Shown here: positions 11,756 to 51,729 of the stretch, piece after piece | Numbering within the stretch: position 1 is the stretch's first letter | Layout: every line of letters begins with the position of its first letter | Assembly: GCA_030407315.1 (NCBI GenBank) | Contig: JALQPE010000343.1 | Span: 1 to 64,000, forward strand | DNA length: 64,000 nucleotides | Source: Asparagopsis taxiformis | Taxonomy: Eukaryota > Rhodophyta > Florideophyceae > Bonnemaisoniales > Bonnemaisoniaceae | Direction of reading: 5' to 3' | Translations under genes and position numbers: made by a program | Notes under the pieces: generated by a model | The model's database searches: none | What the model was told of the DNA's origin: nothing | The model's input: only the letters and a program-made list of their open reading frames with translations

Positions 11756-12004
11756 GCTCGCACGCAAAAAGGGAAATATTTGGGAAAAAGACTTTCGTCA
11801 TAAAAAACCCAAAAAGGGGAAATAAAGGGAAATTCGTAGGATTCGCTACACGTAGCGCCGGGCTCGTAGTTGCACGCGTTCGTGCAGGCGCACCGTGACA
11901 CGTAATCGACTTGCTACACGTACGCTCGCTTACTAACTCAGCGCGGATGCACGCGGACTCATCTCGTCGATATCGCTTCAACCCGTGTTCGCGTTAGCGG
12001 CATA

Positions 12005-12390: not shown

Positions 12391-12487
12391 GACGCGGAGG
12401 CAACCAGGAGTACCCAGCGGGGAAAAAGAATGCAAAAGGAAGAGGCTGCGAGCCAACGGGACGGCGAGCGAGTGAAGCGAAAATTCT

Positions 12488-26378: not shown

Positions 26379-26383
26379 TCACA

Positions 26384-28966: not shown

Positions 28967-30962
28967 CTAGCCAGCCCTGGGAGGGTATCCATGTTCTCTA
29001 GTGATAATAGAAAAAGATCCGCCATCGAGGAAAGATGGACCACCATGTGTCATAGAACGAGTTGTAAAGTTGATGGAGCATATTTCAGGAGTACAGTTGT
29101 GGATAAGACCGAACTTTCGAACTCCAGCGGTAAGAGGAAGAAACCAACTTCCCATGAGCTTCTGTACCTTGTAATTTTGAGATTCATACTTTGAGATAGG
29201 ATAGACCAGGGAACATGGATGTAGAGGACATGAAACGGTTTCGGAATCAGTAGTCTGATTGTTTCTCTGTTCTGGAAGAAATACTTCCAGGACTATCCAG
29301 AGTGTAGGACTAGATGAATTGGAAAGCACAGGACTCGAAGACGGAAACTGATAGCACGCCTGAAGGACAGAGCCCTTTGTGACCTCCTCAGGTTTGGAGA
29401 AATCACGGGAAGCAGAAGCAGTGGAGGTACCGTATGTTTGGTGAGAAGAGGTCCATCGCGCGCCTTTGGCGGGATACCCCGAGATTGCGTGAGAAGTAGT
29501 TTTGCTTGCACATTTGAAAACAGATATAGAACTGGAGAGCTTCACCGTCACACACGAGTACTGGTTGTACGGGGAGGAGAAGCACGGGTGGAAGGATGTG
29601 CGAAGATGATTGAGAAGTGGGTGTTGACAGAGATTAAGGAGGAGATAGTCTGGTATGTCCGAGGTAGAATCGACGTGTTGTCTACCGAAAAGAAGGCGGA
29701 GCAAGAAACGACGATTGACTTTCTTCTGCTCGTTGTATTGTTTGAATGCAGCAAAGACGAGAGTGCAAGGTGCAGTCGTGATTTCCAGTCATTTCCAAGT
29801 GCTGCGAGCATAGCATCGAGCTGTCTATCTGCGCCACCAGCTTGTTCGAGCCCACGCTTCATGGTCTGATGAGTAGCTTCGAAAGCGAGCTCAGCAACTT
29901 GTCTAGCATGACCTACTAGTGGTATTGTGTGTTCGTACGCTTCAACCAGACGATAAAGGTTTGGTTTGTAGTCCAAAGTCCTTCGCGGACGAAATCCTGT
30001 GCCTTTAGTCTCGTAAGCGTCGGCTTCTGAGTCTGGAGCAATAGAAGCTCCAGAGTCTAGCTTTCTTTTCTTTCGAAAAGAACCTTTTCGCTGCCTGGGG
30101 GGTGCAGTGCGAACGAGCTCGTCGACTTTGCGGGCATACTGCTTAGACAGCTGCTGCAAATGTTTAAAGTGAGCTATACCTGAATTCTTTGTTGCATTTT
30201 GAACTGCAGGCTTACCGTCTATGTCCATCCTCGGCAAGTGGTAGCTAGCGGAAATTAGATTGGACAATAGATTAACAAGATAAAGGGAAAGAGTCCTCTG
30301 GTGGTCGGATGCCGCTGTAGAGGAAGATTTGGGTGGGTGGTCGGGGGAGCGGGAGAAGATAAGTGCTTTTTGCAAGCTCGTTGGAGCGACAAGAATGACG
30401 GAGAAGCGCTCGCTCATACCCATTGTGTATGTCTCCGAGCTGGAGTGGTTGTAAACCGTCTTTTGTTGCTGTAGACCGAGTGCTTTCAAAGCATCGACGA
30501 TGAAATGATTAGCAAAATGTCTTGCATCATATGTAGGGAGGCTGCAGAAAGCATTGTCCAACGCATCCTTTGCCAAACCCTGAAGGAGATGGTCGACAAC
30601 AACGAAAGTGGAGCGGTAGCAGTCTATAATAGCTGGCACCACCGGGGATGGTTCTTTTGAACCTGCTTTGAGAGGAACACGTTCGGTGTCACCTGCTTCT
30701 CGAAGGAGGTCTTCAATGAGAAGAAATGGAGTTTGGTTGATGTCTTCTATGGATTTCAAGCCCAGCCTTTTATGGTAGAGAGCAGCTCCTTGATGAACAC
30801 TGGTTCTTAACGCCTTTGTACGCTCTGAAGTGCGGAAAGTGGAGTCTGTAGAGGAATGTATGTTGGGATTATAACCGAATTGGGAGTTTTGTGAAAACTT
30901 ATCGCCCTCGGGAATGTACAAACATGGCACGGGACGTCGCTGATATGCCCCATGACGTCTAG

Positions 30963-31003
30963 CACGTGTGAGCAGGCCGGATGATCCGGCCTGCTCACAC
31001 GTG
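30963..31003. repeat. Perfect inverted repeat, 20-bp arms, 1-base spacer
   Basis: Arms at 30963-30982 and 30984-31003 are exact reverse complements around a single G. The right arm plus flank is the transposase coding sequence; the other arm is its inverted copy. Confidence 0.95.
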
Positions 31004-31006
31004 TTA

Positions 31007-31043
31007 GGTTTCGTTTCCGACTATGATAGTCGGAAACGAAACC
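31007..31043. repeat. Perfect inverted repeat, 18-bp arms, 1-base spacer
   Basis: Arms at 31007-31024 and 31026-31043 are exact reverse complements around a single G. It lies 3 bases from the previous palindrome. Confidence 0.95.
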
Positions 31044-31463
31044 GATAAAGTCGAGGAAGATGACGCAGTCATTACCGTAAGGGTCTTTGTCTCGGAAACC
31101 AGATGTGCAGCCTTGAACGATGTCTCTCGCAATGTAGCGGAGCACATGGTTGGTGCTGACTCCGGGACTGGTGACACCAAGAACGCGGATAGCAGAGGTG
31201 CTACGGAGGCAGTCTAGAGGGAGACCCATGGGGAGCTTGTAACACCCACCTGCGCTTCCTTTTTTCCTGTTGCCTCATTGAAGTCGTCACAGTAGAGTAG
31301 AAAAGGATAGACGTAGTAGATAGTTCCATCGTCTAAAGTTCCTTTGATTGCGTGGCCGGAGAGGCCGGAGAAGGGGCGGGAGAAGTTATAGATATAGCAT
31401 CGACGGATCTAGTTCCACCAATGAGAGACACAGAACCGTTTGAATAGGCGAAGAAAATGATTT

Positions 31464-31502
31464 CTTACAGCAAAGTCATCGTAACGATGACTTTGCTGTA
31501 AG
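31464..31502. repeat. Perfect inverted repeat, 19-bp arms, 1-base spacer
   Basis: Arms at 31464-31482 and 31484-31502 around a single A, in the N-terminal part of the transposase trace. Confidence 0.95.
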
Positions 31503-31750
31503 CACCCAGCGAAACTGCATCATCTGTAAGCCTTCCTCACCTCAATGTTGCAGCCGAAAACGACTGCGACATTACCTTGTTCTATTCTAGTAGTGCCCGC
31601 CATAGTTTACTCCCCTTCTCATATTAAATTGAGTATTGTATATCTCCTGACCCGTCTACATACCCAAACGTATGTACTAGCCTAAGTTTCATCGTTTACT
31701 TGAAGGCGGCCTTGATGCCTGCCATAGAATGCTATTAAGAACTAAGTTCA

Positions 31751-33484
31751 TCAGATATCTAAACGCTCCCAGTAGTTGACATTGAAGGGAGGCTGTAGCA
31801 ACTTCTCCCTGGAAGTTCGAAGTGATAGATGTGACCGGATGGGATGCTGGTACCTCACCGAATAACGACCCTCCGAGAATCCCATTCCTCCGTGATACAC
31901 GTCCGTTCGGCATACAAGCAAGGAATAAGGTGGGATGCGCACGTTCGTCACTGGCACGCGGTACTTGTCTTTCGCTGGATGACTTAGGCACACATGGCTG
32001 AACTTGGCGATACGAATGATGAACCCATCCGCACCAGCAGCCATCATGAAATATGATGGCGAGTTGAGAGGACGGACCAGTTCCAGTTCCCTCACGGACG
32101 GGAACATCGGTATGCATAAGTTGCTCCTGACTACCTTCTGCGGTCAAAATCGGACGAAGACCCGTTTCTGGAAAAACCACCGCTTCTTCTCGTCCAAACC
32201 CGAGCTTCAGGTTCTCCGCACAAATCGCCTTACCTAGCTCCAGAATCAGCTTGTTCCTGTACTGCCGCGCGCTTTCTTGCTCAAGGTCATCGCAGATGCT
32301 TTTCCGGTCCGTCTTGAATACACCAGTGCTGTCTTTCGGTCGAAGTGGTTTCCACGGGTTCTTCTGACTTGCACTTGAGCCACTTGTAGTACCTTGGAAT
32401 GTGCTGGCCATCTATGTGAATAACTCGTGCGTAGCTGCTCCCACTGTAGTAGAAGAGAAAATGTCTTGCAACACCACGTAACCAAGCTCGTCGATCATTC
32501 TTCTCTGGTAGCTGAAGTATTGTTGGCTTTCACAAGAACCGAGGGGACATACCAAAGTAGAGTAGCCTGCAGCTGCTTCCATTATCTCCGTCCGAATTGT
32601 ATCAATGACTTCTTCTGTGATATAATACTTCATTCTCGAGTTGGAAGGAACGCATAAAGGCAGCTTCTCAGGTATCTCCTCTGCGAATGTGCGGTCTGGA
32701 AGGGAGTTTTCTTGCTCGTCAGTGAAGAGTGGTGCTTCTTCTCCAGTCGTTTGTTTCCTTGCATTGACTCTACTCTTCTTTTCCCGGGGAGGCCCAATCT
32801 CAATGTTGTCATCCGGCGTATTGGGCTCAGAAAACTTCGCGCTAGTATCTTCCCTTCTTCGCTTCTTATCCAACCTGGACTCGTTTTCATCGCCGCTTCC
32901 ACCAGAGCTCCTGCTTCTTCCCGAATTCTCCTTGTCCACTTCGGCCGGGCTAGTGCTGTTAGTTTCTGGTGTCCTGATTCGAAGTTTCAATATCACAGAG
33001 CGGTTCTGCGCATCTCCAGCTTGTTTTCCAGTCGTGTCTATGTCCATGCGACCACTATTGTCCAAGTTGATATCCAGACTTTGCGTATCGCCGCTTTGTT
33101 TCCTTCCCTGAGGACGATCTTCTCTGACAATCCTTCCCGGCGAATTATCCCTGGCACGGCTTTCCCGCTCTGCCCTTGAAGCTGAAAGACGTTCCTGTTC
33201 TTTTTGGAGAACAGCCAGACGTTCTGCTTCCCTCTTCTCAGCTGCTGCAAGACGCGTGGCAGGACGTTCCTGTCCTCCCTCTTTTGCTGCGGCAGGACGG
33301 TCTTCTGCTTCTTTCGGGGTGCTCAGAGGTGCCTCTTCTATTGCTTTCGTCGCGACAGCAGGAATCACTTCTTCAGCCACCACATTTGGAGTAATTTCCT
33401 GTTCTTCCTCCACAACAGCACAAACTTCCTGCTCTACTTGGGCTTCGGCAGATATTCCTTCTTCTGCTTGAAGAGGAACACGCT
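31751..33484 (-). pseudogene. 2-oxoglutarate/Fe(II) dioxygenase-like protein of the transposon cassette
   Basis: The N-terminal third is disordered, with an E/R/A-rich coiled-coil-like stretch and basic nuclear-signal-like runs (KKRRRED, REKKSR). The C-terminal catalytic part starts near RRMIDELGYVVLQDIF. It has the iron-binding HTD at 32114-32106, a distal His in VYHGG at 31894-31892, and candidate 2OG-binding Arg residues in GRYSVRYQH just after. This HxD...H...R order is that of 2OG dioxygenases; the subfamily (TET/JBP, AlkB or PhyH-like) cannot be told. An in-frame TAG at 32414-32412 and a +1 frameshift right after HTD break the frame. No ATG is seen at the start: the frame opens at 33484, only about 55 bases after the SET gene stop. 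Confidence 0.65.
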
Positions 33485-33549
33485 ACATTGGTAAAGAAGG
33501 GAATAACATGGTAGAGTGCTCTATTCCACGTGGAATTATCTACGAGGTC

Positions 33550-33554
33550 TTGTT
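33550..33554. repeat. Target-site duplication TTGTT, left
   Basis: TTGTT precedes the LTR at 33555 and is repeated after the far LTR at 48559-48563. It proves that both LTRs belong to one insertion. Confidence 0.95.
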
Positions 33555-34212
33555 TGTGGAACAACGTTAGTTCTAGATAGCTGGTACGAGCTACGGACAC
33601 GCCGTCCTTACGAAACGAAACGAGCAGTCCACCCGCTGGTGTTTTGACTGTATGTTAGGTAGAACGGTAGAGATAGGTTAGCGAGTAGACACGAGCGTCA
33701 CGACGCAACAATCCACGCAAGGATTACGTTAGCAAACGAGGTGGTACGTCACCGGAGGCGCTCTCAACCAAGCCCGGAGGCACTACACGCAATCAGCCTT
33801 ACGTGCGGCGATGGGTAGGGAGTACGCAGCTCGACGGAGACGAAGCCTCGCTAGGCAAAACGTAAACGTAAACGTAGAAGTCAGTCGTAGACTAGAGCCG
33901 TTGCTCGTTCGATGTCTTGTCCCCTTTCCCTCCCGGCACGATGCCAATACCTATTTAGCCACGATGGCATCGCTTTACAGTGTAAACACTGCTCGTAACG
34001 TCCCCGAATGGGAAAGGACCTTGTGGGTCGCACGTAGGGACCCGTTGGTCCGGTGGCCGTTGCCAATACGTTCGTTGCACACGTGTGCCGGTTGCGCGCG
34101 CGCACGCGCCAGCAATGTTCGTGCATTGCTGTTATCGCTCGGGTCCGCGGAAATTCGTAATTCCGCGGAAATCGTAATTATTTGCAATTTCGGAATTGCC
34201 ACGTATACTACA
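33555..34212 (-). repeat. 3' LTR of the family B element (658 bp)
   Basis: Read on the minus strand it starts TGTAGTATACGTGG and ends TTGTTCCACA. Matches 47897-48558 almost throughout. Confidence 0.95.
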
Positions 34213-34229
34213 CAGCCCCACCCCCACAC
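34213..34229 (-). promoter_or_regulatory. Polypurine tract of the family B element
   Basis: On the minus strand GTGTGGGGGTGGGGCTG lies directly before the 3' LTR. Confidence 0.75.
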
Positions 34230-34248
34230 GTGGACGTCCCGGCCACGC

Positions 34249-34934
34249 TGTAGCAGGTAGAAAATCCGCTAGAGCGGCAAACCACCCGACAGGTGTCCCG
34301 AGCCTCGGTAGAGGAAGTGGTAGAGCAGATGAACCTTATAGGTACCCAGCGGGTAGTCTCGTAAGAGAGAAGGTGTCGTTACCCGGAGGGGGTTGTGCGA
34401 CAAAGGGGTGCTCACGCGAGAGGCGTATGGATAGAGCGAGTGACGTAATCCGTCGAGCTGTTGGCTAACCCTAAGGTTTTCCCGGAGAGGGGTTGAACAA
34501 TAGGTATGCGAACACTGTTCCAATGGGTCGTAATTCCACTTGAGTTTACGTTACTCTAGAAACCGTGCCTACTGGCTATTCCAGTGGCGGTTTTATACTA
34601 AGTCTACTGTAAGCTAGGGTTAGTGGTTAGGAATAAATATCCAGTTATTGACCAACCAGAGCCCAGTTAACGGCACTCGCCTACCGGCGAGGTTATTGCC
34701 AGTTAGGCTTACATTGTAATGTACAGCTGGTTAGCTTAAGTTAGAAATTTGCCCCTTGTGGGGTCTTGGCCGGGGCCGATGGGCCCGGATAGGGTTATTT
34801 GTCAGCCTTAGCTTGTCCCAAGTATAGGAAACACGCCAGTTGGCTGGTGCCTTGTGATTGGCACATCCCTTAAGTGGGTACCCAATAGGGAAGCGACACG
34901 CCTCGATCGGCGAGGACCGCCAGGCGGTACGACA
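34249..34934 (-). repeat. Solo family A LTR (686 bp) with TSD CACGC
   Basis: Flanked by CACGC at 34244-34248 and 34935-34939. Very close to the LTR at 11071-11755. It entered after the family B element had inserted. Confidence 0.95.
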
Positions 34935-35435
34935 CACGCGAGGCCCGTCAGGACGCGCCTGAGACACGGGGCCGTGGCGCCTTTTCGGGTACAACTGCGG
35001 ACGTGGCAGTTGTCCCGAAAAATCTCGTTTAAACGTACACGGCCCGGTTGGCTGATCGAATCGCCACGGTGCCGGAGCGCACGCGCGCGCTCCGGCTCTT
35101 TCGTAATCATCGAGGCCCGCCCGTTGGCACCGTTCGTCAATGCCTCGCTTAGGCGTTTCCCTGCATCGAATGCAGTGTCCAATTCCACCACGCGGGTGTG
35201 CTTCAATTCAGCACGATACGTGCGTAGGCCGCGGCCCTTTCGTGAATCTGCCAGCGGGCATTACGACAATGGTCGTCCGAAGGTTATTTAAGCCGCGGCT
35301 TAACGTGATAGCGATCGTCGCTCACCCTTCCTCTCACCATCGTCATCCAGGCCGTTGCCTTTCGTTCTCCCTTACCTCTTTCCCCCGCTGGGTACTGCTA
35401 CCTCCGTTCCTTTCGTTCTCTTGTTTCGTCTAGCC

Positions 35436-36093
35436 TGTCATACCACGGAGTGGTCTGCCCTGGTGGGGTCGTGTCGACATCTTATTGGACGACCCCGGTT
35501 CGGGAATAACCAATGGAAACAGCCTCGCTGTACCTCGGACCAGTGAGGGAGAGGGACCCATTGGGACAACTAAAGACCCCACAAGGGGCAAATTTTAACT
35601 AAGCTGACTCAGCTAACTTTACACTGTAACACTAACAGTCGGTGATCTCGCGGGCTCCCGCAGTCGCCATAATCAGGGATCTGATTGGTGCACATAAGGA
35701 TATTTATTGCTAACTGTCTACCTACCCTAACTGTTTACAGTAACTTAGTCTAGTATAAAATGCCTCTGGATTAGCCAGAGTGCTTAACCTTTAGAGGTAA
35801 CGTAAACTCACGTGGAATTTACGACTCCACTGAACAGTGTTTGCACTGCTCTATTCCATCCTTCCAGGACGAATTAGCTTTAGCTATACAGCTCGATGGG
35901 TTACGTCTTTCGCTCCATCAATACGCACTCCGTGCGTGAGCACCCCCAACCTTCACCCGGCATTACCGGAAGACCTTTCGTGGTATACTCGCTATTGGCG
36001 GTTGACGCAAGATTCGCTTGCTCTACCACACTACCGAGGCTCGGGACACCTGTAGGGTGGTTTTGCCGCTTTGCGGATTTTCTACCTACTACA
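35436..36093 (+). repeat. Solo LTR, diverged family A subtype (658 bp) with TSD TAGCC
   Basis: Flanked by TAGCC at 35431-35435 and 36094-36098. It starts TGTCATACC and ends CTACTACA, with TATAAAA near 35753. It splits the leader of the antisense ORF; the uninterrupted leader can be seen at about 12400-12480 (minus strand). Confidence 0.9.
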
Positions 36094-36161
36094 TAGCCCG
36101 CGTGGCTCTCGTCGTCGTGCTCGTTGCACTCGTCGTAATTATCGTGTACAGCGTAACCACG

Positions 36162-38390
36162 ATGGTTACGACTCGTAGTACCGATGCTAACACTCCGCGG
36201 CCCGCCGGCTCTGCTGGAGGTGGAGCGAGGAACCCTTCGCAGGGCGCTCCCTCCCTCGTCGGAGCCGGTGCGCCGCCAGCGACGGAAGCGTCCATCGCTC
36301 CCGCCCCATCCGTTAGGGCGGGAGAAGCCGTTGCTCCTCAGGCCGTCGCCTCTTCGTCTCGCCCGATGGCTCCGTCTCGCCTGGTGGCTTCCGTGACGCC
36401 TGCCGAGGCTGCTAGGGCCGATGCCCCACGTGATGATGACGCAACGGCGTCCGACTCGGGGAATTCGTCACCCATCATCCCGGATGTCGCGGCCCCATCG
36501 AGGGGCGTAGCCGCGATGGCAGCGGCCGCTCGTTCGCGTCGTGCTGTGGCGGCGGCCCGCACCGGCGTGCCTCGTCGTGACGGTTCGCCTCGTTCTCCTC
36601 GTCAGGATCCCTCGCCGGAGGGTGGTGACCCCGTTGGGACAGTCGGCACCGCCTCACGTGGCGGGGTGGCGCTCAACGTAGGCGTCCTGACCCACGCGTG
36701 GGCTGCGTTGCCCCGCGTGGGCATTACGGATGACGATCTCGCCACGTTGGCAAAAGATCGTCTGGACGCCCGCGCGGTTGTCGACTACATGCTTTCCGCC
36801 GAGGATACGTGGGGGCGGGCAGCCGGGCGTCGTTTCGCCAACGGGCCACCGGGATCGGAACGTTACCAGATCCCGGCGTCGATACGTTGCGACCGCTCGT
36901 GGTTGCGTGACGTCAACGACGCGATCTACGTCGATCGTATGGACGCGTTCCTGTGGAAGGGGACGCCCGAGGAACCGCCGTTCATCTCGGTGGCGTCCGT
37001 CTTCGTATGTCCGCGGACACTTTCCGAAAGGCAACGTGCCGAATGGAAGACTGCTCTTTCGTTGAGCGTCATCTCCAAGAGCGTAGTGTCGTACGACGAC
37101 CATTTCGCGCTCCGTCACGTGAACGCGGACGACTACCGCGTGTCGCACGCGTCGGCTCCGTGGGTCGTCCCGAGCGAGCTCTACTTCCCGCCGTTGCCGG
37201 AAGTAGTAGAGGAGTTTCCGTATCCTCGTGGATCGTCCACATTGCTACCACGCGTGGTGCATTATTTTACCGATGCCGTGAAGGACGCGCCTGCCCCCGT
37301 GAAGGAACGTTTCCTCATGGCCGTGGATATCGAACACGCAGCGATGCTCGCATGCTCGCTGTTCGTGGAACGTCGTGTGTTCGGGCGCGCGTGCCTGCTG
37401 CCGGAGTCCACGTTGGACTTCCTGGCCGACTACGAGATGCTTCGTGCAATCCCGGTGGACGGTTCCGATACGTTCGTCTCCGTTACCAGCGCGTTGGCTG
37501 AGGCTCGCGGCGCCCTTGCGTTGGGGCCGGAGTATCGGGTTATACGTCCCGATTACGCAAGCGGCGATAACCAGGAGTTCGTCTCCGTGCGTAGCGATGG
37601 GGCTTACGTGCCGCGGGTCGCTTCCCGTTCCGAACGCCGTCGTGGCAATCGTACCGGTTATTTCGGTGGCCTCGGGGGCAACGAGCGCCCCCGAGGGACG
37701 CGTTCTGGCCGTCGTGGCCATCAAAACGAAGCGCCGCGTGCGTCGGATCCTCGAGAGATCGTGCCACGCGAGGCTACGGGAGGGGGCAACGTTGCCCGCG
37801 TCGGTCGTCCGGATGTGGCCACGCCGGCCGAGCGCGCGCCACGGTTCGTGAGCCTGGACGACCGCGTCTCCGATGAGGATGCCCGTCGGCTTCTCGGTAC
37901 GTCGATGGCCGCTCCGCCTCGTGTGGGCGGCTGGGTTATTCGTTCCCTCATTACGTCCGTGGCTCGCGCAGCCGAATATTTCAGAGCCCAGACGTTGGAC
38001 CTGACTGCCCGCTTGGCAACGGAGCGCGCGATTTCGGAACGTCTCGCCACGGCGACTCGTGGTTACGCACCGCCCGTTGGTGGTCGTAACGATCCTTACG
38101 CATTTGCGAGTGGCGGCGGCCTCGGCGACCCCGTCGGGTATGGTCACGCAGCGGCGTACCTGCCGCGCGACCCCGCTTCGGCGCGCCCTTCGGATACGCG
38201 CAGTCACGGGACTGCGGACCCTTACGCCAGGGACCCCGCGTCGCGTCGCGAGCGAGCCCCCGTGGTCACGCAGACCGTCGATCCGTACGCGCCGGGCTTC
38301 GTTCAGCCCAGTCGCAGCCGCAGCCACGATAGCCGCGGCGAAGGCCCTGGTCCGTATGACCCTGCGGGCAAGCGTTCTCGTCGCTACTAG
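36162..38390 (+). CDS. Antisense ORF (aORF) of the family B Ty3 element, 742 residues
   Basis: Intact frame from ATG at 36162. The frame is also open upstream, but that part is the end of a solo LTR, so the ATG is the better start. The protein opens MVTTRSTDANTPRPAGSAGG and has an Ala/Ser/Pro-rich N terminus. A folded-looking middle (residues about 170-460, DAIYVDRMDAFLW, NADDYRVSHAS, FTDAVKDAPAPVKERFL) follows, then an Arg/Gly-rich stretch with SERRRGNRTGYFGG and a D-P-Y repeat tail (NDPYAFA, ADPYARD, VDPYAPG). No known domain is recognised. It runs opposite to gag-pol, between pol and the 3' LTR. A homologue lies in the same place in family A, and a fragment at 12005-12390. Function unknown; Gag-like, RNA-binding or Env-like roles are all open. 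Confidence 0.75.
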   Translation: MVTTRSTDANTPRPAGSAGGGARNPSQGAPSLVGAGAPPATEASIAPAPSVRAGEAVAPQAVASSSRPMAPSRLVASVTPAEAARADAPRDDDATASDSGNSSPIIPDVAAPSRGVAAMAAAARSRRAVAAARTGVPRRDGSPRSPRQDPSPEGGDPVGTVGTASRGGVALNVGVLTHAWAALPRVGITDDDLATLAKDRLDARAVVDYMLSAEDTWGRAAGRRFANGPPGSERYQIPASIRCDRSWLRDVNDAIYVDRMDAFLWKGTPEEPPFISVASVFVCPRTLSERQRAEWKTALSLSVISKSVVSYDDHFALRHVNADDYRVSHASAPWVVPSELYFPPLPEVVEEFPYPRGSSTLLPRVVHYFTDAVKDAPAPVKERFLMAVDIEHAAMLACSLFVERRVFGRACLLPESTLDFLADYEMLRAIPVDGSDTFVSVTSALAEARGALALGPEYRVIRPDYASGDNQEFVSVRSDGAYVPRVASRSERRRGNRTGYFGGLGGNERPRGTRSGRRGHQNEAPRASDPREIVPREATGGGNVARVGRPDVATPAERAPRFVSLDDRVSDEDARRLLGTSMAAPPRVGGWVIRSLITSVARAAEYFRAQTLDLTARLATERAISERLATATRGYAPPVGGRNDPYAFASGGGLGDPVGYGHAAAYLPRDPASARPSDTRSHGTADPYARDPASRRERAPVVTQTVDPYAPGFVQPSRSRSHDSRGEGPGPYDPAGKRSRRY

Positions 38391-40861: not shown

Positions 40862-43800
40862 TCACGTTGTTGCTCGTCGCACGCGTGCGAAGTATCGAGA
40901 GACGCTCTCTTCAGATACGTTCCGGCGGGGCTCCCACGTAGGGTTACGATACCCGACCCACTTCACGAGGAAGCCTAGGGTGCCGTCATCGTTTACGCGA
41001 TGGTTCAGTAGGTCGTCTACTACATACGCCGGACCGTCGCGGTTCTTGTCGAGGTCTGCCTCGGTGGCATCGTATGGCTCCGGCGGGGGCGCGTTCGCCG
41101 GCGTTGGCGCGTACGCAACGCGGTCCGAGTTGACACGTTCAACTACGTCTCCTCGTTGGATGACGAACGTACGTACGTCGTTACGTAGTACGCGGAACGG
41201 TCCCAACGCGTGGTTGCCGAGCTTCGTGCCCTTCGTGGTCCCGTCCGTCGGGTCGATGAATACGTATTCTCCCGCGCGGATGTTTCGATTCGAGACACGG
41301 ACTCGTTTGTCGAAATTTCGTTTATAACGTGCCTGCGCGGCCTTCAGCGTTCGATACGCGTTATCCATCGTTGTGGCGAGCTCACGAACGTAAGTGGCTC
41401 GCCCTCCCCCGTCGGGTAGTTCGCGGTTCGTTACCGACGTGTGTAGCGCCAGCGGTGGCCGTGGATTCGTGAGAATCAAATCGAAGGGCGTCGTGCCCGT
41501 GCTCGAATGCACATGCGTGTTGTACGCAAACGTTAACGCCGATGCGTATCGATCCCAGTCGTTCTGGTTTTCGTTCACGTAATTGCGCAGCATCGCCAGG
41601 ATCGTCCTGTTGTAGCGCTCCACCTGCCCGTTCGTTTGGGGGTGGTACGTCGACGTAAAGACGTTCGTTACGCCAATCTCGTTGCAAACGCGCTGGAAGA
41701 ACTTAGCAGCGAACTGCTTTCCGTTGTCGCTTATGAGCGTCCGTGGGGGTCCATACGAGAAGACCCACGCGTTGACGAACGCACTCGCCACGTTGGCGGA
41801 ATCGATATTTCGTAGAGGTACGACTCTGGTTAGCTTCGTAAAGCGGTCCGTTATAACGAGGATAAATCGGTTACCACGCGTGGTCTTCGTAAGCGGACCT
41901 AGTATGTCGATACATAGGTCTCGCAACGGCTCCGTAGCCGGGAATAAACGTAACGGGTTCGTCCGTTTGCGAAGCTTCACGCGGTTCTTCGCACATCCAA
42001 CGCAGTTTCGTACCGTTGCGTGGATGTCGGCGGCCATCGCGGGCCAGTAGTACGTCCTCCGTAGGGTGTAGTACATAAGTGTTTGTCCGGGATGTCCAGC
42101 GAGGACGTGGTGGTGCGTTAACTCCAGCAGCCGCGGCCGCAACGAAGCCGGCACAACGATTTGTGTACGTTCCTCGTCGTGAGGGTTCCGGCGTCGGAGT
42201 AAGCCATCGTGGCCTTCGAAGAATGCAGCGTCCTGCGTCTCGGACTGTCGTGTCAGTATCGTTTGACAGAACGCGTCCTCGCGTTGAGCTTCGATAAGCT
42301 CGTCCCTCGTAATGGGAAGCTGAACGTCAGCTGGTGGCACGCGTGCCGAATCGTCTTCAGCAGCGCGCTGTTCGTCGAGGAAATCCGGTTCCTCGTCGAG
42401 AACGTCATCGAGCGACGCGTCGCGGTTGAACTCGAGTCCCTCGTTGCCAGCCGTCGCGGCTGGTGCTCGTTCGTCACGAGTCTCGTTCGACGGGTCGTCG
42501 TGACCCCTGGCATTCGGTGCCTCTTTACGTACGGACGTCGTTCGTCCTTGCCCTTTTCGTGTGGGTTGTCGCCGACTGCGAGTCGTCACGAGGACTGCGT
42601 CCCCGTACGATGGTACGTCATCGTCAACGGGTCGACCGTCGTCATACGTAGATATCACGCGTGATAAAGCGTCAGGTACCTGGTGCACGCGCCCAGGCCT
42701 GTACGTAACTTCGAAATCGAATTCGGCAACGCGTAGCCTCCATCGTAGTAGTCGTCCGGACGCGTCCGTAAGCGTCATCAGCCAACGCAAGGCTTCGTGG
42801 TCCGTACGTACGGTGAACCGCTGACCCTCTACGTAGGGTCGGAGCGACGTTATCGCCCAGACGACGGAGTAGCACTCGCGCTCGGTCGCTGAGTAACCGC
42901 GTTCGGTTTCGTTAAGGGTCTTCGACCAGTACCCAATCGGCACCCATTCGTTGGGCTTATCTTCGTTCTGCTGTTGGAGCAACGTAGCTCCCAGCTGATA
43001 CGCCGACGCGTCGGTATCGATCATGAACGGACGTCCCGCCTTCGGAAGGTGCAATACTGGTGGCGACACCAGTATTGTCTTCAACGTTTCGAACGCATTC
43101 GTTTGCGCGTCAGTTGGATTCGTCCAATCGGGGGAAGCGTCCTTCTTCAACATCGTGTTGAGTGGCCGAGCGATCTCGGCGTACGCCTTTACGAAACGGC
43201 GGTAAACGTTGGCCGCGCCCAAAAACGATCGACATTGCGTCTTGTCGCGTGGGAACGTAGCCGTACGAAAGGCTTCCTTGTTCCGAGCTGCGACGTGCAG
43301 CTTCCCTGGGGTGATCACGTGCCCCAGGTAGTCAACTCGTGGTTGAAAGAACGAGCACTTCGTGAGCTTTAACGTTACTCCCGCTGCGCGTAGCAGGGAA
43401 AGCACCTGGTCAACGTGACCCAGGTGAGACTCGAGGTCTTTCGAAAAGACGATTACGTCGTCTAAGTAAACAAGGCACGATTGCCAACGTACTCCGGAGA
43501 GGATGATGTCCAACGTCCGCTGAAACGTAGCGGGGGCGTTTCGTAGCCCGAATGGCATTCGCACGTAGCGATACGTTCCCATGAAAGACGTAAACGTTGT
43601 CTTATCACGGTCCTCGGCGGAGACGGGCACTTGCCAGTAACCGGCGTTACAATCGAGTGTCGTAAAGATAGCCGCGTCGCCAAGCGAATCTAGGCAGTCT
43701 TCCATACGAGGAAGCGGGTACGAATCAGCGATCGTTTTCGCGTTCAAACGCCTGTAGTCGACACAGAAACGTAAGGATCCGTCCTTCTTCGGCACCAACA

Positions 43801-44310
43801 CGATTGGTGACGCCCATTCGCTGGACGCGGGTTCGATAACCCCTTCGTTGAGCATCTTCGTGATCTGCTCCTCGGCTATCGTACGTAGAGCCGGACCCTG
43901 ACGATAGGGCATTGAACGTATGGGCCGCGTGCCCGGTTCTAGTTCGATTCGATGCTCCGTAGCATTGATTTCGCCGAGGCGTCCGCTCGTCCACATTGAC
44001 GAATGTGTGGCTAGCATCTCGTTGATGCGCTTTCGTAAGTCCTCGTCGTCGAGGTGCGACAAATCGATTGTCGACTGCCAATCCGTGGCGGAGTCGTTCC
44101 CCTTTTCGTTGACCAACGGGTCTGGCGTTTCGCCGCCCAACCCGTTCGTATTTATCCGCGTCGTCGCGTCGACTAGCGGTAGGTTCAAAACCTTCGCGAG
44201 GGCTTCGCCGCCCTCACGCTTGAGTGGGACGATTCCCAACGGGGAGCGTACCGCGTACGCAATCGTCGCGCCTTTCGGCAGCTCGCGGTCCTTCTTCGTG
44301 TAGATACGAT
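40862..44310 (-). CDS. pol: Pol: RT, RNase H, integrase, chromodomain (family B)
   Basis: Over 1,125 codons stay open. RT: YRRLNAKTIADSYPLPRMED, FGLRNAPATFQR and YLDD at 43468-43457. RNase H: FMIDTDASAYQLGATLLQQ, TVRTDHEALRWLM. Integrase: HHVLAGHPGQ...CVGCAKNR zinc site, then D in DILGPLTKTTRG, D in LISDNGKQFAAKFF and E in NGQVERYNRTIL. A chromodomain closes the protein (DDLLNHRVNDDGTLGFLVKW and NPTWEPRRNV, about 41040-40880). All catalytic residues are present. The frame starts without an ATG and is reached from the protease frame by a -1 change near 44310. Family A has that junction in one frame, so an indel at a TTTT run is likely. Confidence 0.9.
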
Positions 44311-45460
44311 AATAGAAAACGTCTCTCTGGGTCCTACGTCGACCACTCCGTTGGCTATACGAAGCCCATGCCGGAATTGCACCGACGCTTTCGGTTCGAG
44401 GAACACGAGTCCGGTCGCATCCGTCGTCACGTTGACGGTCCGTTGCGACATCGCCGGTACACGCGTGTACTTCGTCAGGCGAACCGAAAACGTTCGGCTC
44501 GGCCGATTCGAGGCCGCGTTACGCTCGCGGCGCTTCGGGTGTTCCACGTTTGGATTCGTTTCCCCTTCCTCCTCGTACGGAGTTTTCGAATCACCCTCCG
44601 CGATAATGGGTATCGTATCTCCTCGGTGGAGCTCGATCGTCTGCGCTCGACAGCGTATAGCATCGACATGTTTCGACATGAACGATGTACCCATTATGAC
44701 GGGGACAGCCAGCGTGTTGGCTACGAGGAATTTTACGCGGAACAGCGAGTTCCCAAGCCTGACACGAAGCAGGATGGCGCCTTCGATAGGCAAGCGTCGC
44801 CCGTTGGCGTCTCCGAGCTTCGGTAGCTCTTCGTCACGTAGACAGCGGTCAACCCAGTTGTAGGGTAGCAAACTTGTTCGTATCAAGTTGTAGCCGCTGC
44901 ACGTATCCATCGCGATGGTAATCGCCCTCATCACGTTGAGGTCTAGTCCGATCGTTCCGGACACGATGTAATGCTTCGAAGCAAGTAGGCACGTGTGCCT
45001 GTCGAGAACCAACGGTTCGGTTCTGACCGGCGCGCGGTCTCCGTCTCCGTTGACGGTTCTTTGCTTCACCGTATGAGCCTGTATGGCTTCTTTTGCGTCG
45101 ACACGCTTCGTATAAGCCGCGTGCTTGGCTTTCTCGCGCTCGGAAGCGTCGTGCTTCCGGGTAGCGCGTCTCGCTCGTCTGCGAGACTTCCTCTTCGTGT
45201 GAGGTTCGTTCGTCCCGTTGGACTTCGTGTCTCTCCCCACGTCGGGTATCGTTTGACTCGAGTTGGCCTTCGCGGCCGTGAGCTTTTCGTAACTCTCGTT
45301 CGTCGGTGAGCCTGCGGAGGACCAATCATCGATGCCGGTCGTCCCCCTTTCACGTAAGGGTTCAGGCGATGTGGGTGGCTCGTGACCTACATCGCCTGGT
45401 CGTTTTCCGGTGCGAGGCCGTTCGACACGTCGTCGTCGCGAGCCCACGAAGCTCGTTCGT
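44185..45460 (-). CDS. Protease-containing N-terminal part of Pol (family B)
   Basis: Open frame in the -1 phase of gag. Basic N-terminal half, then an aspartic protease with DTCSG at 44907-44890 in place of the usual DTGSG, and VPVIMGTSFMSKHVDAIRC downstream. No ATG opens it: it overlaps the end of gag by about 70 bases, after a TGA near 45463. It is therefore probably made by frameshift from gag. The swap of Gly to Cys in the active-site loop is unusual and might lower activity. Confidence 0.7.
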
Positions 45461-47792
45461 CATCGTGACTCGTCTCCACCTCGAGTGGTGTTTCGTCAGC
45501 GGAGGTCGTCACGTAGACTCCGCTGCGGCCATTACGCTGGCCATTTCGTTCGTTCGCCCACGGGCGGGGGTCACGTCGGTCATTACGAAAGTCGCCGCGG
45601 CGCCTGTCGAAGGGCCTTCCCCCGTCACGATTGGGGTTTCGGAGTATCGTAGGCGGCGTGCCGTACCTCCGCGGGGTCACGTTCCCTCGCTCGCCAGGTC
45701 GTTCCTGGTTACGTTTGGCCATTCGTTGGCGGAAGTACTCAGCCTGACGTGGGTTGCTCTTCACGTGGAAGAAGTAGTACTTGTACGCGAAAAAGATCCG
45801 TTGATCTGGCGTCAGACGCGGACACGTGAACGTCGAGTGGCCATCTTCGCGGCATGACCAACACGACAGCGTCCAGTAATCATTCGGGATTACGGAGTGC
45901 GCTAATTGCGTCTGCTCGCTCGTGAGCTTCGGCACGTCCTCGCATGGACGGTTCAATCGAGCTTCGAGCTCGTCCGGCTTTTCGTTTGCCGTTTTCGTGT
46001 CGTTGGGCGGCGGCCCGTTCGTGAAGAGGATCGCCTCTAGATTCTCGGCAACGTGAACCGCAGCGAGCGACACGTCGTCATCATCCCTCGCGGGGATATT
46101 CGGGTTACCATCGTGGTAACTGGGCTCGTTAGCCCATTCGTTACGTAAGTACGCGGACTCATCGTAGTCCGCGAACTTCTTCGACTCGTGGTCGGAAATA
46201 GCCAACGTAGGCTTCACCGGAAACCGCACTTTCGGTTTCGCGGCTGACGCGACAGCTGCCGTACGTGCACGGAAGGTCGTTCCTTCGGCCGTCGCCAATC
46301 GTCTCACAACGGTGAGGTCGTTCCTCTCTCGTTCGGGGAGTGACCGGAGTCGTTCCGTCACGGCTGCCCGCGTCGAGGGCAGTAAACCACGCACGTAGTG
46401 GTGAACGAGGAGTCGATCCGTAAACACGTAGTTGCACGCCCGCGTGGCAGTGTCGAGTCTATCAGCGTACTGATTCTCGTCCTCGTTAGGACTCTGCGTG
46501 ATCATCGTGACCTTTTCGTAGGCCTCCTGCAGCACATCGTCTTGCAGGTATCGTTTGATCAACGCGTTGATCACGTGAGGCCACGAGAACCTCTTCGTCG
46601 GATCAGTCGTGATCACACCAGTCGTACACTGGGAATCGTAGAACCGTCGGGCGTCCCCTTCGAGGAAGAAGTGCAGCGCACGTACTGCCACTCCCTCGCA
46701 CACTCCGAGTGTGCTGAACCCATCACGTATTTGGGCGAGGAATCCGAGTAACGTAATCGGATTCCGGCCGGAGAACGGCTTTAACGTAGGGAAAAGTCCC
46801 TCCAGCTCACGTTTGAGCTTATGTACGCTTTGACTCTCGTTCACGTAGAGATGTTCACGTACATCGTTAAGTCGGTACATACGGTACGACACCACGTTCG
46901 CAAATGCGTCGAGCATTGTCGTGTGCTCTGCCAACGCGTGGCAAACGGGTTCGAGGGCGTTCCCTGGTAAGCGTACCGCGTCGGCACGTTCGTTTTCGTG
47001 GACTCGCGTGTCCGTCGTGCCGAACGTACCCAGCCACGGAATGTACGTTTCACGTGGCGGGGGAGCTCTCGTATCGAATTGCGCAGCTCGTGCTGCGTCC
47101 GCCGACCGCGCATGGTCTGGCGTATCGTTAAAACGTAATTGCCTTCGTGGCGTCTCGTCGGGGTTGGCGATGGCTCGTTGCACTGTCGCCCCCCTTCCGT
47201 ACGTTGTCGGGGTCGTCGGACCGGGTGTTGGTGGGTATCCTCCCGGAACGGCCGGGGAGGATTGCGAGTTATAGGCGCGCGAGCCTTCTTCGTAATTCGG
47301 ATCGCTTCCGCTCGGCGGAGCGGAACGTCCGGCGACGATTTCGTTGAATACTACGACAAACGAGTCGAGTCTTCCCTCCACGGCGGAGAGGCGGTTTCGT
47401 AAATCTTCGTTTTCCCGTTCGAGGGTCGCTGAGCGTTCACGTAACGCAAGAGCTTCGCGCTCCGAGACTCCGAGTCTCTGCCTTACGGCTTCGTCGACGG
47501 CCGCGTCGCTCGCCCTTTCGATGTGACCTCGAAGGTCTTCGTACACTACGCGTAGTGCCGTGGGAGTCACGTTCCCTTCGTTGAGCTGACCGCGCGTTGC
47601 GGGGTCCATACTCACGGACTCAAACGGGCTTACCGTACGTGGTAGCTGGCCGATCGCCTCGATATCCGGCGGGATAGATCGATCAGTCGCGAAGATCGCT
47701 TCTGCTGACAAGGCCACGTCGGCTTCGGCGTCCGCTGACGTTGGCAACGGTTGCCTGGGCGACGCGCTGGAATTCGACACAGCGTAATTCAT
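45387..47792 (-). CDS. gag: Gag polyprotein (family B)
   Basis: 801 residues from ATG at 47792 (MNYAVSNSSASPRQPL); the frame is open upstream but without an earlier ATG. A coiled-coil-like segment (SEREALALRERSATLERE) lies in the first 150 residues. The capsid-like region spans about 320-520 (FSGRNPITLLGFLAQIRDGF, DENQYADRLDTATRAC, VHHYVRGLLPSTRAAV). A CCHC knuckle CWSCREDGHSTFTC (CX2CX4HX4C) is near 45870-45825. The R/N/G-rich tail is typical of nucleocapsids. The stop at 45387 lies within the overlap with the protease frame. Confidence 0.85.
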   Translation of the reverse strand: MNYAVSNSSASPRQPLPTSADAEADVALSAEAIFATDRSIPPDIEAIGQLPRTVSPFESVSMDPATRGQLNEGNVTPTALRVVYEDLRGHIERASDAAVDEAVRQRLGVSEREALALRERSATLERENEDLRNRLSAVEGRLDSFVVVFNEIVAGRSAPPSGSDPNYEEGSRAYNSQSSPAVPGGYPPTPGPTTPTTYGRGATVQRAIANPDETPRRQLRFNDTPDHARSADAARAAQFDTRAPPPRETYIPWLGTFGTTDTRVHENERADAVRLPGNALEPVCHALAEHTTMLDAFANVVSYRMYRLNDVREHLYVNESQSVHKLKRELEGLFPTLKPFSGRNPITLLGFLAQIRDGFSTLGVCEGVAVRALHFFLEGDARRFYDSQCTTGVITTDPTKRFSWPHVINALIKRYLQDDVLQEAYEKVTMITQSPNEDENQYADRLDTATRACNYVFTDRLLVHHYVRGLLPSTRAAVTERLRSLPERERNDLTVVRRLATAEGTTFRARTAAVASAAKPKVRFPVKPTLAISDHESKKFADYDESAYLRNEWANEPSYHDGNPNIPARDDDDVSLAAVHVAENLEAILFTNGPPPNDTKTANEKPDELEARLNRPCEDVPKLTSEQTQLAHSVIPNDYWTLSCWSCREDGHSTFTCPRLTPDQRIFFAYKYYFFHVKSNPRQAEYFRQRMAKRNQERPGERGNVTPRRYGTPPTILRNPNRDGGRPFDRRRGDFRNDRRDPRPWANERNGQRNGRSGVYVTTSADETPLEVETSHDDERASWARDDDVSNGLAPENDQAM

Positions 47793-47877
47793 AGACCGTC
47801 GTCTGTAGCGTAGCACGTAGCTTTTCGTTAACGTAAAAGAGCTCAACCTCGTTGGTTGTCGTTATGCTCGTAGCAAC

Positions 47878-47895
47878 CTCTAGGTCGAGAGACCA
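47878..47895 (-). promoter_or_regulatory. Putative primer-binding site of the family B element
   Basis: On the minus strand, one base after the 5' LTR, TGGTCTCTCGACCTAGAG begins with TGG as complement of a tRNA CCA end. The cognate tRNA is not identified. Confidence 0.5.
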
Positions 47896-47896
47896 G

Positions 47897-48558
47897 TGTG
47901 GAACAACGTTAGTTCTAGATAGCTGGTACGAGCTAGTGGACACGCTGTCCTTACGAAACGAAACGAACGAACAGTCCACCCGCTGGTGTTTGACTGTATG
48001 TTAGGTAGAACGTTAGAGATAGGTTAGCGAGTAGACACGAGCGTCACGACGCAACAATCCACGCAAGGATTACGTTAGCAAACGAAGTGGTACGTCACCG
48101 GAGGCGCTCTCAACCAAGCCCGGAGGCACTACACGCAATCAGCCTTACGTGCGGCGATGGGTAGGGAGTACGCAGCTCGACGGAGACGAAGCCTCGCTAG
48201 GCAAAACGTAAACGTAAACGTAGAAGTCAGTCGTAGACTAGAGCCGTTGCTCGTTCGATGTCTTGTCCCCTTTCCCTCCCGGCACGATGCCAATACCTAT
48301 TTAGCCACGATGGCATCGCTTTACAGTGTAAACACTGCTCGTAACGTCCCCGAATGGGAAAGGACCTTGTGGGTCGCACGTAGGGACCCGTTGGTCCGGT
48401 GGCCGTTGCCAATACGTTCGTTGCACACGTGTGCCGGTTGCGCGCGCGCACGCGCCAGCAATGTTCGTGCATTGCTGTTATCGCTCGGGTCCGCGGAAAT
48501 TCGAAATTCCGCGGAAATCGTAATTATTTGCAATTTCGGAATTGCCACGTATACTACA
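47897..48558 (-). repeat. 5' LTR of the family B element (662 bp)
   Basis: Same ends as 33555-34212. The target duplication TTGTT follows at 48559-48563. Confidence 0.95.
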
Positions 48559-50131
48559 TTGTTGAAATACTCAGGACCGTAGTCAAGGAGTAGTTCCTCA
48601 TTGGGTGAGATAGGTCGAGTGGCAATTATTCTAACAGAAGAGTACTTCTGAAGCATATCGAAATCAAGAATATCTTCATCGGGACACTCAAAATCAACGT
48701 TGGGCTCTCGGAAGTCAGCTTCCATGCTTTCGACAGAGCTGATCCTTTTCGGATCATTACTCATCGCACAGACGCAGAATTCGAAAGGGATAAGGAAGAT
48801 GGGAAGCTTTCGAGCCGAGGGAATGAGGCAGCTACGATCTGCGTGCTTGATTTGAAGGGCATAATCACGAAAGCGGGCCGTGTTGAAAGCAGTGGCATCG
48901 CGTCCATGTGACGAGCGCTTCGAATTGTACAGATTACTATACGCGAGAGACCCGTAATAGTAGCCCACCAAGTATCCAACTTCGAAACCATCTCTTGAAA
49001 AAAGACCGTTGCCTGCGTTCGGAATGGAGGATGGAGCAACGTAAACATTTTGGTATATTGCGTCCACGGCGAGGAGATAGGAAGATTCAACGGTGAGAAG
49101 GTTTGCCCTGACGGATTGAGCCCAGTTGTCCACTGGTGTGGACTGAAGGGCAGGGTAGTGCGAAGGGGACTTCCAAATTCCGCAGAGAACACTGGTAAGG
49201 TGTTCGGGGATTGTCGTAGACTGGGGAAGGTGTGCACCAGGCGGGGTGTTATTGCGAACCTCAGCACGATATTTTTGGACGTGTGCAGTTGCCAGGCTCT
49301 GAACTTCGGAGGAGGAATGAGAGGCAAAATTTCCGTCGGAGAGCTGTTCGCAAAACGCGAGCTGTAGCTTGGGAAAGGAGACGTCGTGGCAGTATTGTTG
49401 CTGCTCACACCGGACGAAAGTGCGGTACTGACCGTCGTTCATGGTGAGGGCGGCTATACCGGTAGAGTATGTGCCCGCGAACATGTCGACGACGACATCA
49501 CCAGGCTGTGAGAAACGAGCGACAATTTCCTTGAGAAGAGCACTTGTCTTCTGCTTTGGTCGGAGAGCCATCTTGCGCTTGGCGTTGCGAGGGTCCACGA
49601 CGGTGATTCGTTCTTCATGAGACAAACGGGGGATGTTGTTGATTATGTTTGTCCAGGGTTGAAAGGTGGAACAAACGTAACCGTGTGGGGAATAGATGAC
49701 GAGTCCCCAGCCGGCGGTACCGGCGCCCAGCTTTGTGACGTGGACAACTACCTCAACCATATTCATTAGACTTTTCGTCATGCGAAGGGGCGAGGAAGAA
49801 TAGTTGGTCCGGTGGCGGATGCAGAAGAGCGGCTGGTTGTCCACGGAGAAATCTGAGTGTGATCCGGGTAAACCACTTCGCTCAGAGCCTGGGACCATTT
49901 GGAGAAAAGAACCGACGAGGTGAAAATGAGACCATGACCACCTGGACGGAGTATCCTGGACATCATTGCGACGCAATCTTCTATATCCCGGTCAGTGAGG
50001 ATGTCATACTGTGAGTTACGGAGACCAGAATTCCTCCTTGTGTTGTACGGAGGGTCGGTGAGAACGAGTTGGACGTTGTCTTCGAGAGGGGGTACGTCTG
50101 TGTTCTCGGAAATGGACGCGGACGTCCACAA
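48559..50131 (-). pseudogene. DPPY-type DNA methylase fused to a SET domain
   Basis: The N-terminal piece (50131-49860) has DPPY at 50056-50045 in VLTDPPYNTRRNSG, then ILRPGGHGLIFTS. After one frameshift near 49860 the second half continues. Residues QKTSALLKEIVARFSQPGDV and then VVDMFAGTYSTG form the SAM-binding FxGxG block (about 49500-49470). DPPY before FxGxG is the beta-class order of prokaryotic N6-adenine/N4-cytosine methylases. A SET domain follows (about 49046-48560) with SSIPNAGNGLFS, AMSNDP, EPNVDF and EELLLDYGPEYF, the set expected of a lysine methyltransferase. A stop sits two codons before the first residue, beside palindromic repeats, so the N terminus is lost. The LTR at 48558 removed only the last few codons: across the element the frame ends after four residues, with the stop at 33542-33540. 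Confidence 0.85.
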
Positions 50132-50330
50132 CCTCTAGTACACCTAGTATTACTAGGCGGACGTCCATGTTCTCTAGTATTTTTGGATGTCCGCCTAGAA
50201 CCGGACGTCCATGCGGTCTAGTACGTCTATTATTAATAGGACGACATTCATTGTTTCTAGTACCACGGATGTCCCCCTGGGGATGGACTTCCACCATGTC
50301 TATGTCCACCTAGGACGGGCGCCGGTTCAG
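50100..50330. repeat. Cluster of GGACGTCC-type palindromes and tiny hairpins
   Basis: GCGGACGTCCAC, GGCGGACGTCCATG, and CCGGACGTCCATG occur within 120 bases, along with CTAGTAC runs. CCTAGTA-T-TACTAGG (50143-50157) and CTATTA-T-TAATAG (near 50228) are hairpins with one-base loops. Related GGACGTCC sites go on at 51790-53225. The cluster replaces the missing 5' end of the methylase gene. Confidence 0.65.
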
Positions 50331-51690: not shown

Positions 51691-51729
51691 TGCGGGAATT
51701 TTCGGCACAGGAGATGCTGGGCCACCAAA

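What the first reader, a model, noticed from the sequence alone, without database searches (positions are those of the whole stretch)
28967..50131. Transposon-type cassette with DNA methylase-SET, 2OG dioxygenase and transposase, split by a retroelement
Seen: on the minus strand, removing the 15-kb element with its TTGTT duplication puts a DPPY/FxGxG methylase fused to SET about 55 bases ahead of a 2OG-Fe(II) oxygenase ORF, followed by a Tnp2-like transposase. Known: fungal KDZ and related transposons carry TET/JBP oxygenases, and beta-class methylases are prokaryote-type. Inference: a mobile element carrying a DNA methyl writer, a histone-type SET writer and a possible oxidative eraser. This combination is not one I know as described.
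Basis: partly seen in the sequence, partly recalled or inferred. Interest (0 to 1): 0.92.

Follow-up and report, generated by a model that had tools for sequence, protein, structure and literature searches.

The report
Giant transposon with epigenetic writer genes
The stretch is a broken jumble of several jumping genes, but intact relatives elsewhere in the same genome form a giant transposon, present in hundreds of near-identical copies, that carries a DNA methylase fused to a histone-methylase-type domain and a second protein that looks like an oxidative eraser.

Summary
The layout is real, but in the window it is a chimera of relics. The methylase-SET gene (subtype W, 52 copies) is cut at 50095 by another transposon's end, is frameshifted, and is split from what follows by an LTR retroelement (33555-48558, TSD TTGTT; empty site seen in another copy). 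The '2OG ORF' is the C-terminal half of a ParB-like/2OG-like fusion from another element family (437 copies); in capped lists 0 of 14 other W copies have it within 20 kb.

A 21,374-bp element (C192) with inverted ends and a 2-bp TSD carries ParB-2OG, DNA methylase-SET, an unknown protein and a Plavaka transposase. Copy numbers match (928, 945, 1018; 2734 termini), spacings are fixed, and three of the four genes show purifying selection. A second lineage pairs a Plavaka-like transposase (430) with ParB-2OG (437).

The parts
50095..53228 (+). Terminal region of a type-A-like giant transposon: terminus CGTCTGTGTTCTCGGAAATGGACG at 50095, subterminal GGACGTCC/CTAGTA motifs, ~200-bp R repeats; it interrupts the methylase-SET W gene just before DPPY
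   Evidence: 92.7% identical over 1.9 kb to L025:7379-9255; the same junction in L024, L025 and the window, later also C516, C340, C192, C310; R-like repeats at 51741-53228
48564..50092 (-). Relic of beta-class DNA methylase-SET gene, subtype W: DPPY part in one frame, FxGT and SET in another; N-terminal half missing
   Evidence: Pfam; tblastn to the open B-type protein, 46.5% over 430 aa and 53% over 73 aa; 48 other loci at 77-95% identity
48559..48563 (.). TTGTT target-site duplication, right copy
   Evidence: empty site in L036
33555..48558 (-). LTR retroelement (gag, RT, RNaseH, integrase, chromodomain) with LTRs 33555-34212 and 47897-48558; splits the W gene in its last codons
33550..33554 (.). 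TTGTT target-site duplication, left copy
33480..33549 (-). Tail of the W element after the SET stop; its terminus (about 87 bp further on in C2322) is missing here
   Evidence: 98.7% to L036:87-161; R-type terminus at L036:215-248
31458..33480 (-). C-terminal half of a ParB-like/2OG-like gene (type B), frameshifted, ParB half deleted
   Evidence: 97.4% over 2025 bp to C348 = L028, where the 1078-aa frame is open
29548..31328 (-). Fragmented Plavaka-like transposase relic
   Evidence: 27% over 374 aa and 33% over 151 aa to L024:505-1920, which matches Pfam Plavaka at 9.6e-5 (22.2 bits, below the 26.3 cut-off); 39-42% over 62-72 aa to the frame upstream of ParB-2OG-B at C1569

Best explanation
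The window holds wreckage of a large family of giant Plavaka-type DNA transposons. Shown: in intact members (type A; example C192:125923-147296, 21,374 bp) the ends are imperfect inverted repeats starting CGTCTGTGTTYTCGGAARTGGACG, insertion duplicates 2 bp, and four long frames lie inside: ParB-like/2OG-like (1403 aa frame, minus), beta-class DNA methylase-SET (plus; frameshifted in C192, 1064-1068 aa open in 14 other copies), an unknown protein (794 aa, plus) and a Plavaka transposase (1077 aa, minus). Inferred: the element marks itself. ParB-like domains bind the palindromic GGACGTCC and CTAGTA arrays packed into the ends and the GGACRTCC pairs in the intergenic repeats; the methylase-SET enzyme then writes 6mA or 4mC on the element's DNA and a methyl mark on nearby histones; the ParB-2OG protein, aimed the same way, removes a host or element mark. 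The result would be an open state that keeps copies transcribed and recognisable to their own transposase, that is, an anti-silencing kit. In the window one such gene was cut by another element's end, hit by an LTR retroelement, and joined by a deletion or rearrangement to a fragment of a second element family.
Against: No functional data; which base or histone residue is modified is unknown. The 2OG domain has no Pfam, NCBIfam or PDB-sequence match and its AlphaFold model failed (pLDDT 35.9). ParB support is a motif plus weak phage-family hits (E 0.018-0.29 in 3 of the 8 proteins scanned; none in the C192 piece, P0046 or P0047). ORF794 shows no purifying selection (pN/pS 1.22, 5 copies, first 400 aa). 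Copies used for pN/pS were chosen for long open frames. 4 of 11 terminus pairs lack a 2-bp TSD. The contig-permutation control still puts ParB-2OG within 15 kb of 21.6 of 85 methylase copies, so the fixed spacing, not mere proximity, is the evidence. The window genes themselves are not one unit.
Confidence: 0.55

Rival explanations
1. The window's own order (methylase-SET, then 2OG, then transposase) is one mobile cassette.
For: Same strand and about 60 bp between the SET stop and the 2OG frame once the retroelement is discounted.
Against: In the intact W copy C2322 the element ends about 150 bp after the SET stop and no 2OG gene follows; copy numbers 52 and 437; no other listed W copy within 20 kb of a listed ParB-2OG-B (0 of 14).
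Confidence: 0.04
2. The accessory proteins serve transposition rather than anti-silencing: methylation of the subterminal motifs by the element's own enzyme licenses transposase binding or replication-timed excision (as Dam does for Tn10, and as TnpA binding does for maize Spm; both recalled), with SET and 2OG as chromatin openers at the donor site.
For: Motif arrays are concentrated in the last few hundred bases; all three enzymes are kept with the transposase at fixed spacing.
Against: Nothing distinguishes it from anti-silencing by sequence; motif arrays are also typical transposase sites without methylation (recalled).
Confidence: 0.22
3. Self-restraint: the element methylates itself and its histones to silence extra copies (copy-number control) and ParB-2OG lifts this in the germ line.
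For: Writer and possible eraser encoded together; very high copy number tolerated in one genome.
Against: More than 900 near-identical copies of a gene whose mean pS is about 1.4% do not look like restraint.
Confidence: 0.1
4. Passenger genes: methylase-SET and ParB-2OG are captured host or viral genes hitch-hiking without function for the element.
For: Some TIR-bounded units are much shorter (10-12 kb pairs), so the genes are not needed in every copy.
Against: pN/pS 0.19-0.23; two diverged lineages keep ParB-2OG with a transposase; homologous methylase-SET and ParB-2OG proteins exist in other records.
Confidence: 0.07

Closest known systems
[quoted passage not shown] passages read)
   Same: Giant eukaryotic DNA transposon; ParB-like domain; prokaryote-type N4C/N6A methylase; proposed to modify its own transposon
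   Different: Here Plavaka, not Sola1; the methylase is fused to a SET domain, and a second ParB-like protein carries a 2OG-like domain; the passages seen mention neither
Giant EnSpm/Plavaka elements of red algae (Petroll et al. 2025, Bostrychia moritziana; cited in PMC12477816; paper not held; name and abstract recalled)
   Same: Giant CACTA-related elements with several accessory genes in red algae
   Different: Could not be compared: the paper was not readable here and may already describe some of these genes
TET/JBP-carrying fungal transposons, including PlavakaB (Kojima 2025, PMC12730594; passages read)
   Same: Plavaka-type transposase with an Fe/2OG dioxygenase on board, read as escape from methylation-based silencing
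   Different: Our dioxygenase-like domain is fused to ParB and has no detectable TET/JBP relationship; a DNA methylase-SET is also carried; termini CGTCTGTG..CACAGACG instead of TGT..ACA or CATCA..TGATG
SET-carrying transposons HarbingerS and MuDR of Phytophthora (named in the introduction of PMC12730594)
   Same: A SET histone-methylase gene on a DNA transposon
   Different: There a SET gene in other superfamilies; here SET is fused to a DNA methylase
N4CMT of bdelloid rotifers (PMC8885841, listing and start of abstract only; structure 8s9m)
   Different: Single host gene with a chromodomain (recalled), not a SET fusion on a transposon

Membership tests
Plavaka (CACTA/EnSpm-related) DNA transposons | Plavaka transposase domain | tested here: met
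   PF18759 4e-24, 85.9 bits, cut-off 26.3, in the 1077-aa type-A protein; the second lineage is only below cut-off (L024, 22.2 bits)
Plavaka (CACTA/EnSpm-related) DNA transposons | 2-3 bp target-site duplication | tested here: met
   2 bp in 7 of 11 pairs; 7 of 90 among non-partners
Fungal PlavakaA/PlavakaB sublineages (as defined in PMC12730594) | Termini 5'-TGT..ACA-3' or 5'-CATCA..TGATG-3' | tested here: not met
   Termini are CGTCTGTG..CACAGACG; the duplicated 2 bp lie outside CGTC. So it is not filed in either fungal sublineage; TGT does occur 4 nt inside
Beta-class (N6A/N4C) DNA methyltransferases | DPPY motif before the SAM-binding FxGxG region, class fold | tested here: met
SET-domain lysine methyltransferases | SET fold with GxG, Asn and catalytic Tyr | tested here: met
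   PF00856 28.7 bits (L009) and 23.5 bits (L027), cut-off 22.4; in 23 aligned proteins Asn and Tyr of the IND and ELxxxYG motifs are over 90% conserved; SET7/9 by Foldseek 8.1e-7, TM normalised by target 0.43. The window relic itself is below cut-off (19.8 bits); substrate untested
Fe(II)/2OG dioxygenases | HxD...H...R facial triad and 2OG-binding Arg | tested here: inconclusive
   HxD invariant in 4 of 4 aligned sequences; distal H and R readable in 3 (the fourth, P0047, is truncated); no family or PDB match
Fe(II)/2OG dioxygenases | Double-stranded beta-helix fold | tested here: inconclusive
   AlphaFold model from 4 sequences failed, pLDDT 35.9
TET/JBP | Sequence membership of the TET/JBP family | tested here: inconclusive
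   No Pfam or NCBIfam hit up to E 10; no TET/JBP profile search beyond these
ParB/Srx-like DNA-binding domain | ParB-like profile match with (V/I)DGxHR motif | tested here: inconclusive
   Motif in proteins A, B, P0046, P0047 and P0003; phrog_1033 ParB-like at E 0.018, 0.13 and 0.29 in three proteins, none in P0046, P0047 or the C192 piece; no Pfam ParB match

The most novel reading that the evidence does not exclude
A eukaryotic transposon lineage carries a complete, self-addressed chromatin programme: ParB-like readers of its own end motifs aim a combined DNA-and-histone methyl writer and an oxidative eraser, and the writer gene sits in an invertible module between inverted repeats, so that its orientation may switch expression on and off between copies. 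Both orientations are found at fixed spacings.
Probability: 0.25. Interest if true: 0.92.

Novelty: new variant of a known kind. Interest (0 to 1): 0.72.

Why it matters
Transposons with a single epigenetic enzyme are known. One that keeps a DNA writer, a histone-type writer and a possible eraser together, under purifying selection, in more than 900 gene copies of one genome would make self-marking by mobile DNA directly testable by methylation-aware long reads, and would offer a bacterial-type 6mA/4mC system acting in a eukaryotic nucleus.

Tried and rejected
GGACGTCC as a whole-genome palindrome signal: the first count was confounded by redundant copies; kept only as end enrichment within one element. 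2OG by Pfam, NCBIfam and PDB profiles: no match (the best PDB rows were nitrite reductases at E 0.34). Viral relatives of the 2OG domain: 24 pattern matches in viral contigs, none confirmed. AlphaFold of the 2OG domain failed; no fold search was run on it. ParB by Pfam: none. Methylase-SET B as partner of ParB-2OG-B: 1 of 14 listed, so not accepted. In VIA-align the 50 rows shown cover only the methylase part; SET support comes from Foldseek and Pfam. A protein search with ParB-2OG-B returned only its near-identical self. Literature: 8 searches; within the open library none of the titles, abstracts or passages I saw describes a methylase-SET plus ParB-2OG element; the Bostrychia paper was not held. 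Hosts of the homologues are mostly unnamed; P0031 is labelled Pyropia vietnamensis.

Limits of the counts: copy numbers are pattern matches with 2 (3 for W and B) mismatches in an assembly of 3156 contigs, so collapsed or duplicated contigs bias them; only the first 100 places per pattern are listed (for the high-copy patterns all with 0 mismatches), and linkage counts use only those. In one search places beyond contig C262 were dropped (99 ParB-2OG-A, 85 methylase and 97 transposase places used), 7 of 100 ParB-2OG-B places were dropped. One search scored 150 of 1661 candidates; 140 of these lie at 33.4-35.5 bits.
Full report
What the window shows. The window lies on contig C343 of an unnamed 141-Mb eukaryotic assembly of 3156 contigs; the best named relative of its methylase is from the red alga Pyropia vietnamensis (P0031), so a red alga is likely but not shown. 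On the minus strand there is an LTR retroelement (33555-48558) with 98.3% identical LTRs and a TTGTT duplication. To its right is a methylase-SET relic, to its left the '2OG' frames and transposase fragments. An intact relative of the methylase-SET gene at C2322 shows the empty site of the retroelement.

Why it is a chimera. The relic starts at 50095, where the terminus of another transposon begins; the same terminus lies against unrelated flanks in L024, L025, C516, C340, C192 and C310. At C2322 the methylase-SET (W) element ends about 150 bp behind the SET stop, at a terminus of the same family. In the window this end is missing: W-like sequence stops at 33480, and there a fragment begins that is 97.4% identical to the C-terminal half of a 1078-aa ParB-like/2OG-like gene at C348. 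W has 52 copies, ParB-2OG-B 437. Among 15 W places on contigs where both lists can be compared, only the window has both within 20 kb.

The intact element. A SET search of the genome gave 140 hits of nearly equal score in long frames (150 of 1661 candidates scored). Eighteen stretches were fetched; 17 of them carry a methylase-SET gene that I call type A (the eighteenth is the contig continuation of the window). The large shared blocks are about 97-100% identical. Extending some of them gave a complete unit on C192: 21,374 bp from C192:125923 to 147296, with a 2-bp TT duplication. Its frames are ParB-2OG (1403 aa, minus), methylase-SET (937 aa of it open here, frameshifted upstream; 14 other copies are open over 1064-1068 aa from the putative start), ORF794 (plus) and a 1077-aa transposase (minus). 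The transposase is Plavaka by Pfam at 4e-24. By the listed places, two further units bounded by facing termini, C52:39208-59251 (TSD TA) and C88:1468-22241 (no 2-bp TSD), hold all three genes in the same order (read off the lists by eye).

Is it one element? Termini: 2734 matches, reversed-pattern control 0. TSD: 7 of 11 pairs against 7 of 90 non-partners. Copy numbers: ParB-2OG 928, methylase-SET 945, transposase 1018. Of 85 listed methylase-SET places, 56 have ParB-2OG and 55 the transposase within 15 kb; 34 have both and 8 neither. The distance methylase-transposase is 5756-5847 bp, opposite strands, in 41 of 55; another group (10, mostly near 7.6 kb) is on the same strand. For ParB-2OG, 13 lie at 4419-4438 bp on the same strand and 39 on the opposite strand at 3.7-11.2 kb. 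The permutation control gives 21.6 of 85, so nearness alone says little in this dense genome, but the fixed distances do.

Two orientations. The order ParB-2OG(-) methylase(+) transposase(-) occurs 26 times, transposase(+) methylase(+) ParB-2OG(+) 5 times, and the partial form methylase(+) ParB-2OG(+) 12 times. The methylase gene is flanked by inverted copies of a repeat of about 210 bp. One ancestral inversion that was then amplified is the plain reading; repeated flipping is possible and untested.

Selection. Mean pN/pS is 0.23 for methylase-SET (14 copies, 91 pairs, pS 0.014), 0.19 for ParB-2OG (6 copies, first 950 aa), 0.19 for the transposase (6 copies, C-terminal part) and 1.22 for ORF794 (5 copies, first 400 aa). 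Open copies were chosen, which biases the values down, and differences are few; still, ORF794 handled the same way shows no constraint.

A second lineage. ParB-2OG-B (437 copies; 43 of 43 scored copies open over the full length, 98-100% identical) lies behind a frame related to the Plavaka-like transposase of L024 and of the window (45% over 84 aa to L024). That frame has 430 copies, and in 65 of 93 places it sits 4.8-5.3 kb upstream on the same strand; no other arrangement was found within 8 kb. A ParB-2OG gene thus travels with two separate transposase lineages, in one of them without a methylase-SET gene as a regular neighbour.

How it probably works. Shown: gene content, ends, linkage, constraint, methylase and SET folds. 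Inferred: ParB-like domains read the motif arrays at the ends (8 GGAYGTCC-type sites in 1 kb of ends against 11 in 20.4 kb; CTAGTA 22 against 1), the writer methylates element DNA and histones, and the 2OG protein removes marks. I give 0.55 to this whole reading; that the four genes form one transposon I hold at about 0.95, that the C-terminal domain is a working 2OG enzyme at about 0.7.

Compared with what is known. Ectocarpus Sola1 carries a ParB-methylase said to modify its own transposon, with counterparts in green and red algae, and giant EnSpm elements with accessory genes are reported for red algae (PMC12477816, passages). Fungal transposons, Plavaka among them, carry TET/JBP dioxygenases, and SET genes ride on HarbingerS and MuDR of Phytophthora (PMC12730594, passages). 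New here, as far as the 8 searches of an open-access library show, are the methylase-SET fusion and the ParB-2OG partner on one Plavaka-type element. The Bostrychia paper could not be read and may hold part of this.

Noticed in passing
window 58906-60990 (+): Another ParB-like (VVDGHHR) plus N6_N4 methylase frame (PF01555 5.9e-6, just above cut-off), 24% to the type-A methylase over 176 aa; frame ends at 60990 and no SET was found behind it.
   Followed up: partly
C343:64505-65920 (-), L024:505-1920: Plavaka-like transposase frame beyond the window (PF18759 9.6e-5, below cut-off), same lineage as the window relic and as the frame next to ParB-2OG-B.
   Followed up: partly
L024:3819 onward (C343:67819): A second transposon terminus of the same family near the contig end, in the same orientation as the one at 50095.
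   Followed up: partly
window 54909-56843 (-): Long frame with DUF7869 (1.4e-49).
   Followed up: no
window 11071-13027, 25125-26379: Further copies of sequences of the LTR retroelement (LTR and neighbouring parts), direct and inverted.
   Followed up: no
C348:141217-142905 (-), L028:2817-4505: A third ParB-like frame (563 aa, 31% to the ParB half of ParB-2OG-B over 410 aa) just downstream of ParB-2OG-B; sequence between them is conserved at C1569.
   Followed up: partly
C310 and C348 (ORFs of about 580 aa): Unknown proteins of 578-584 aa and a 575-580 aa protein recur near methylase-SET genes.
   Followed up: no
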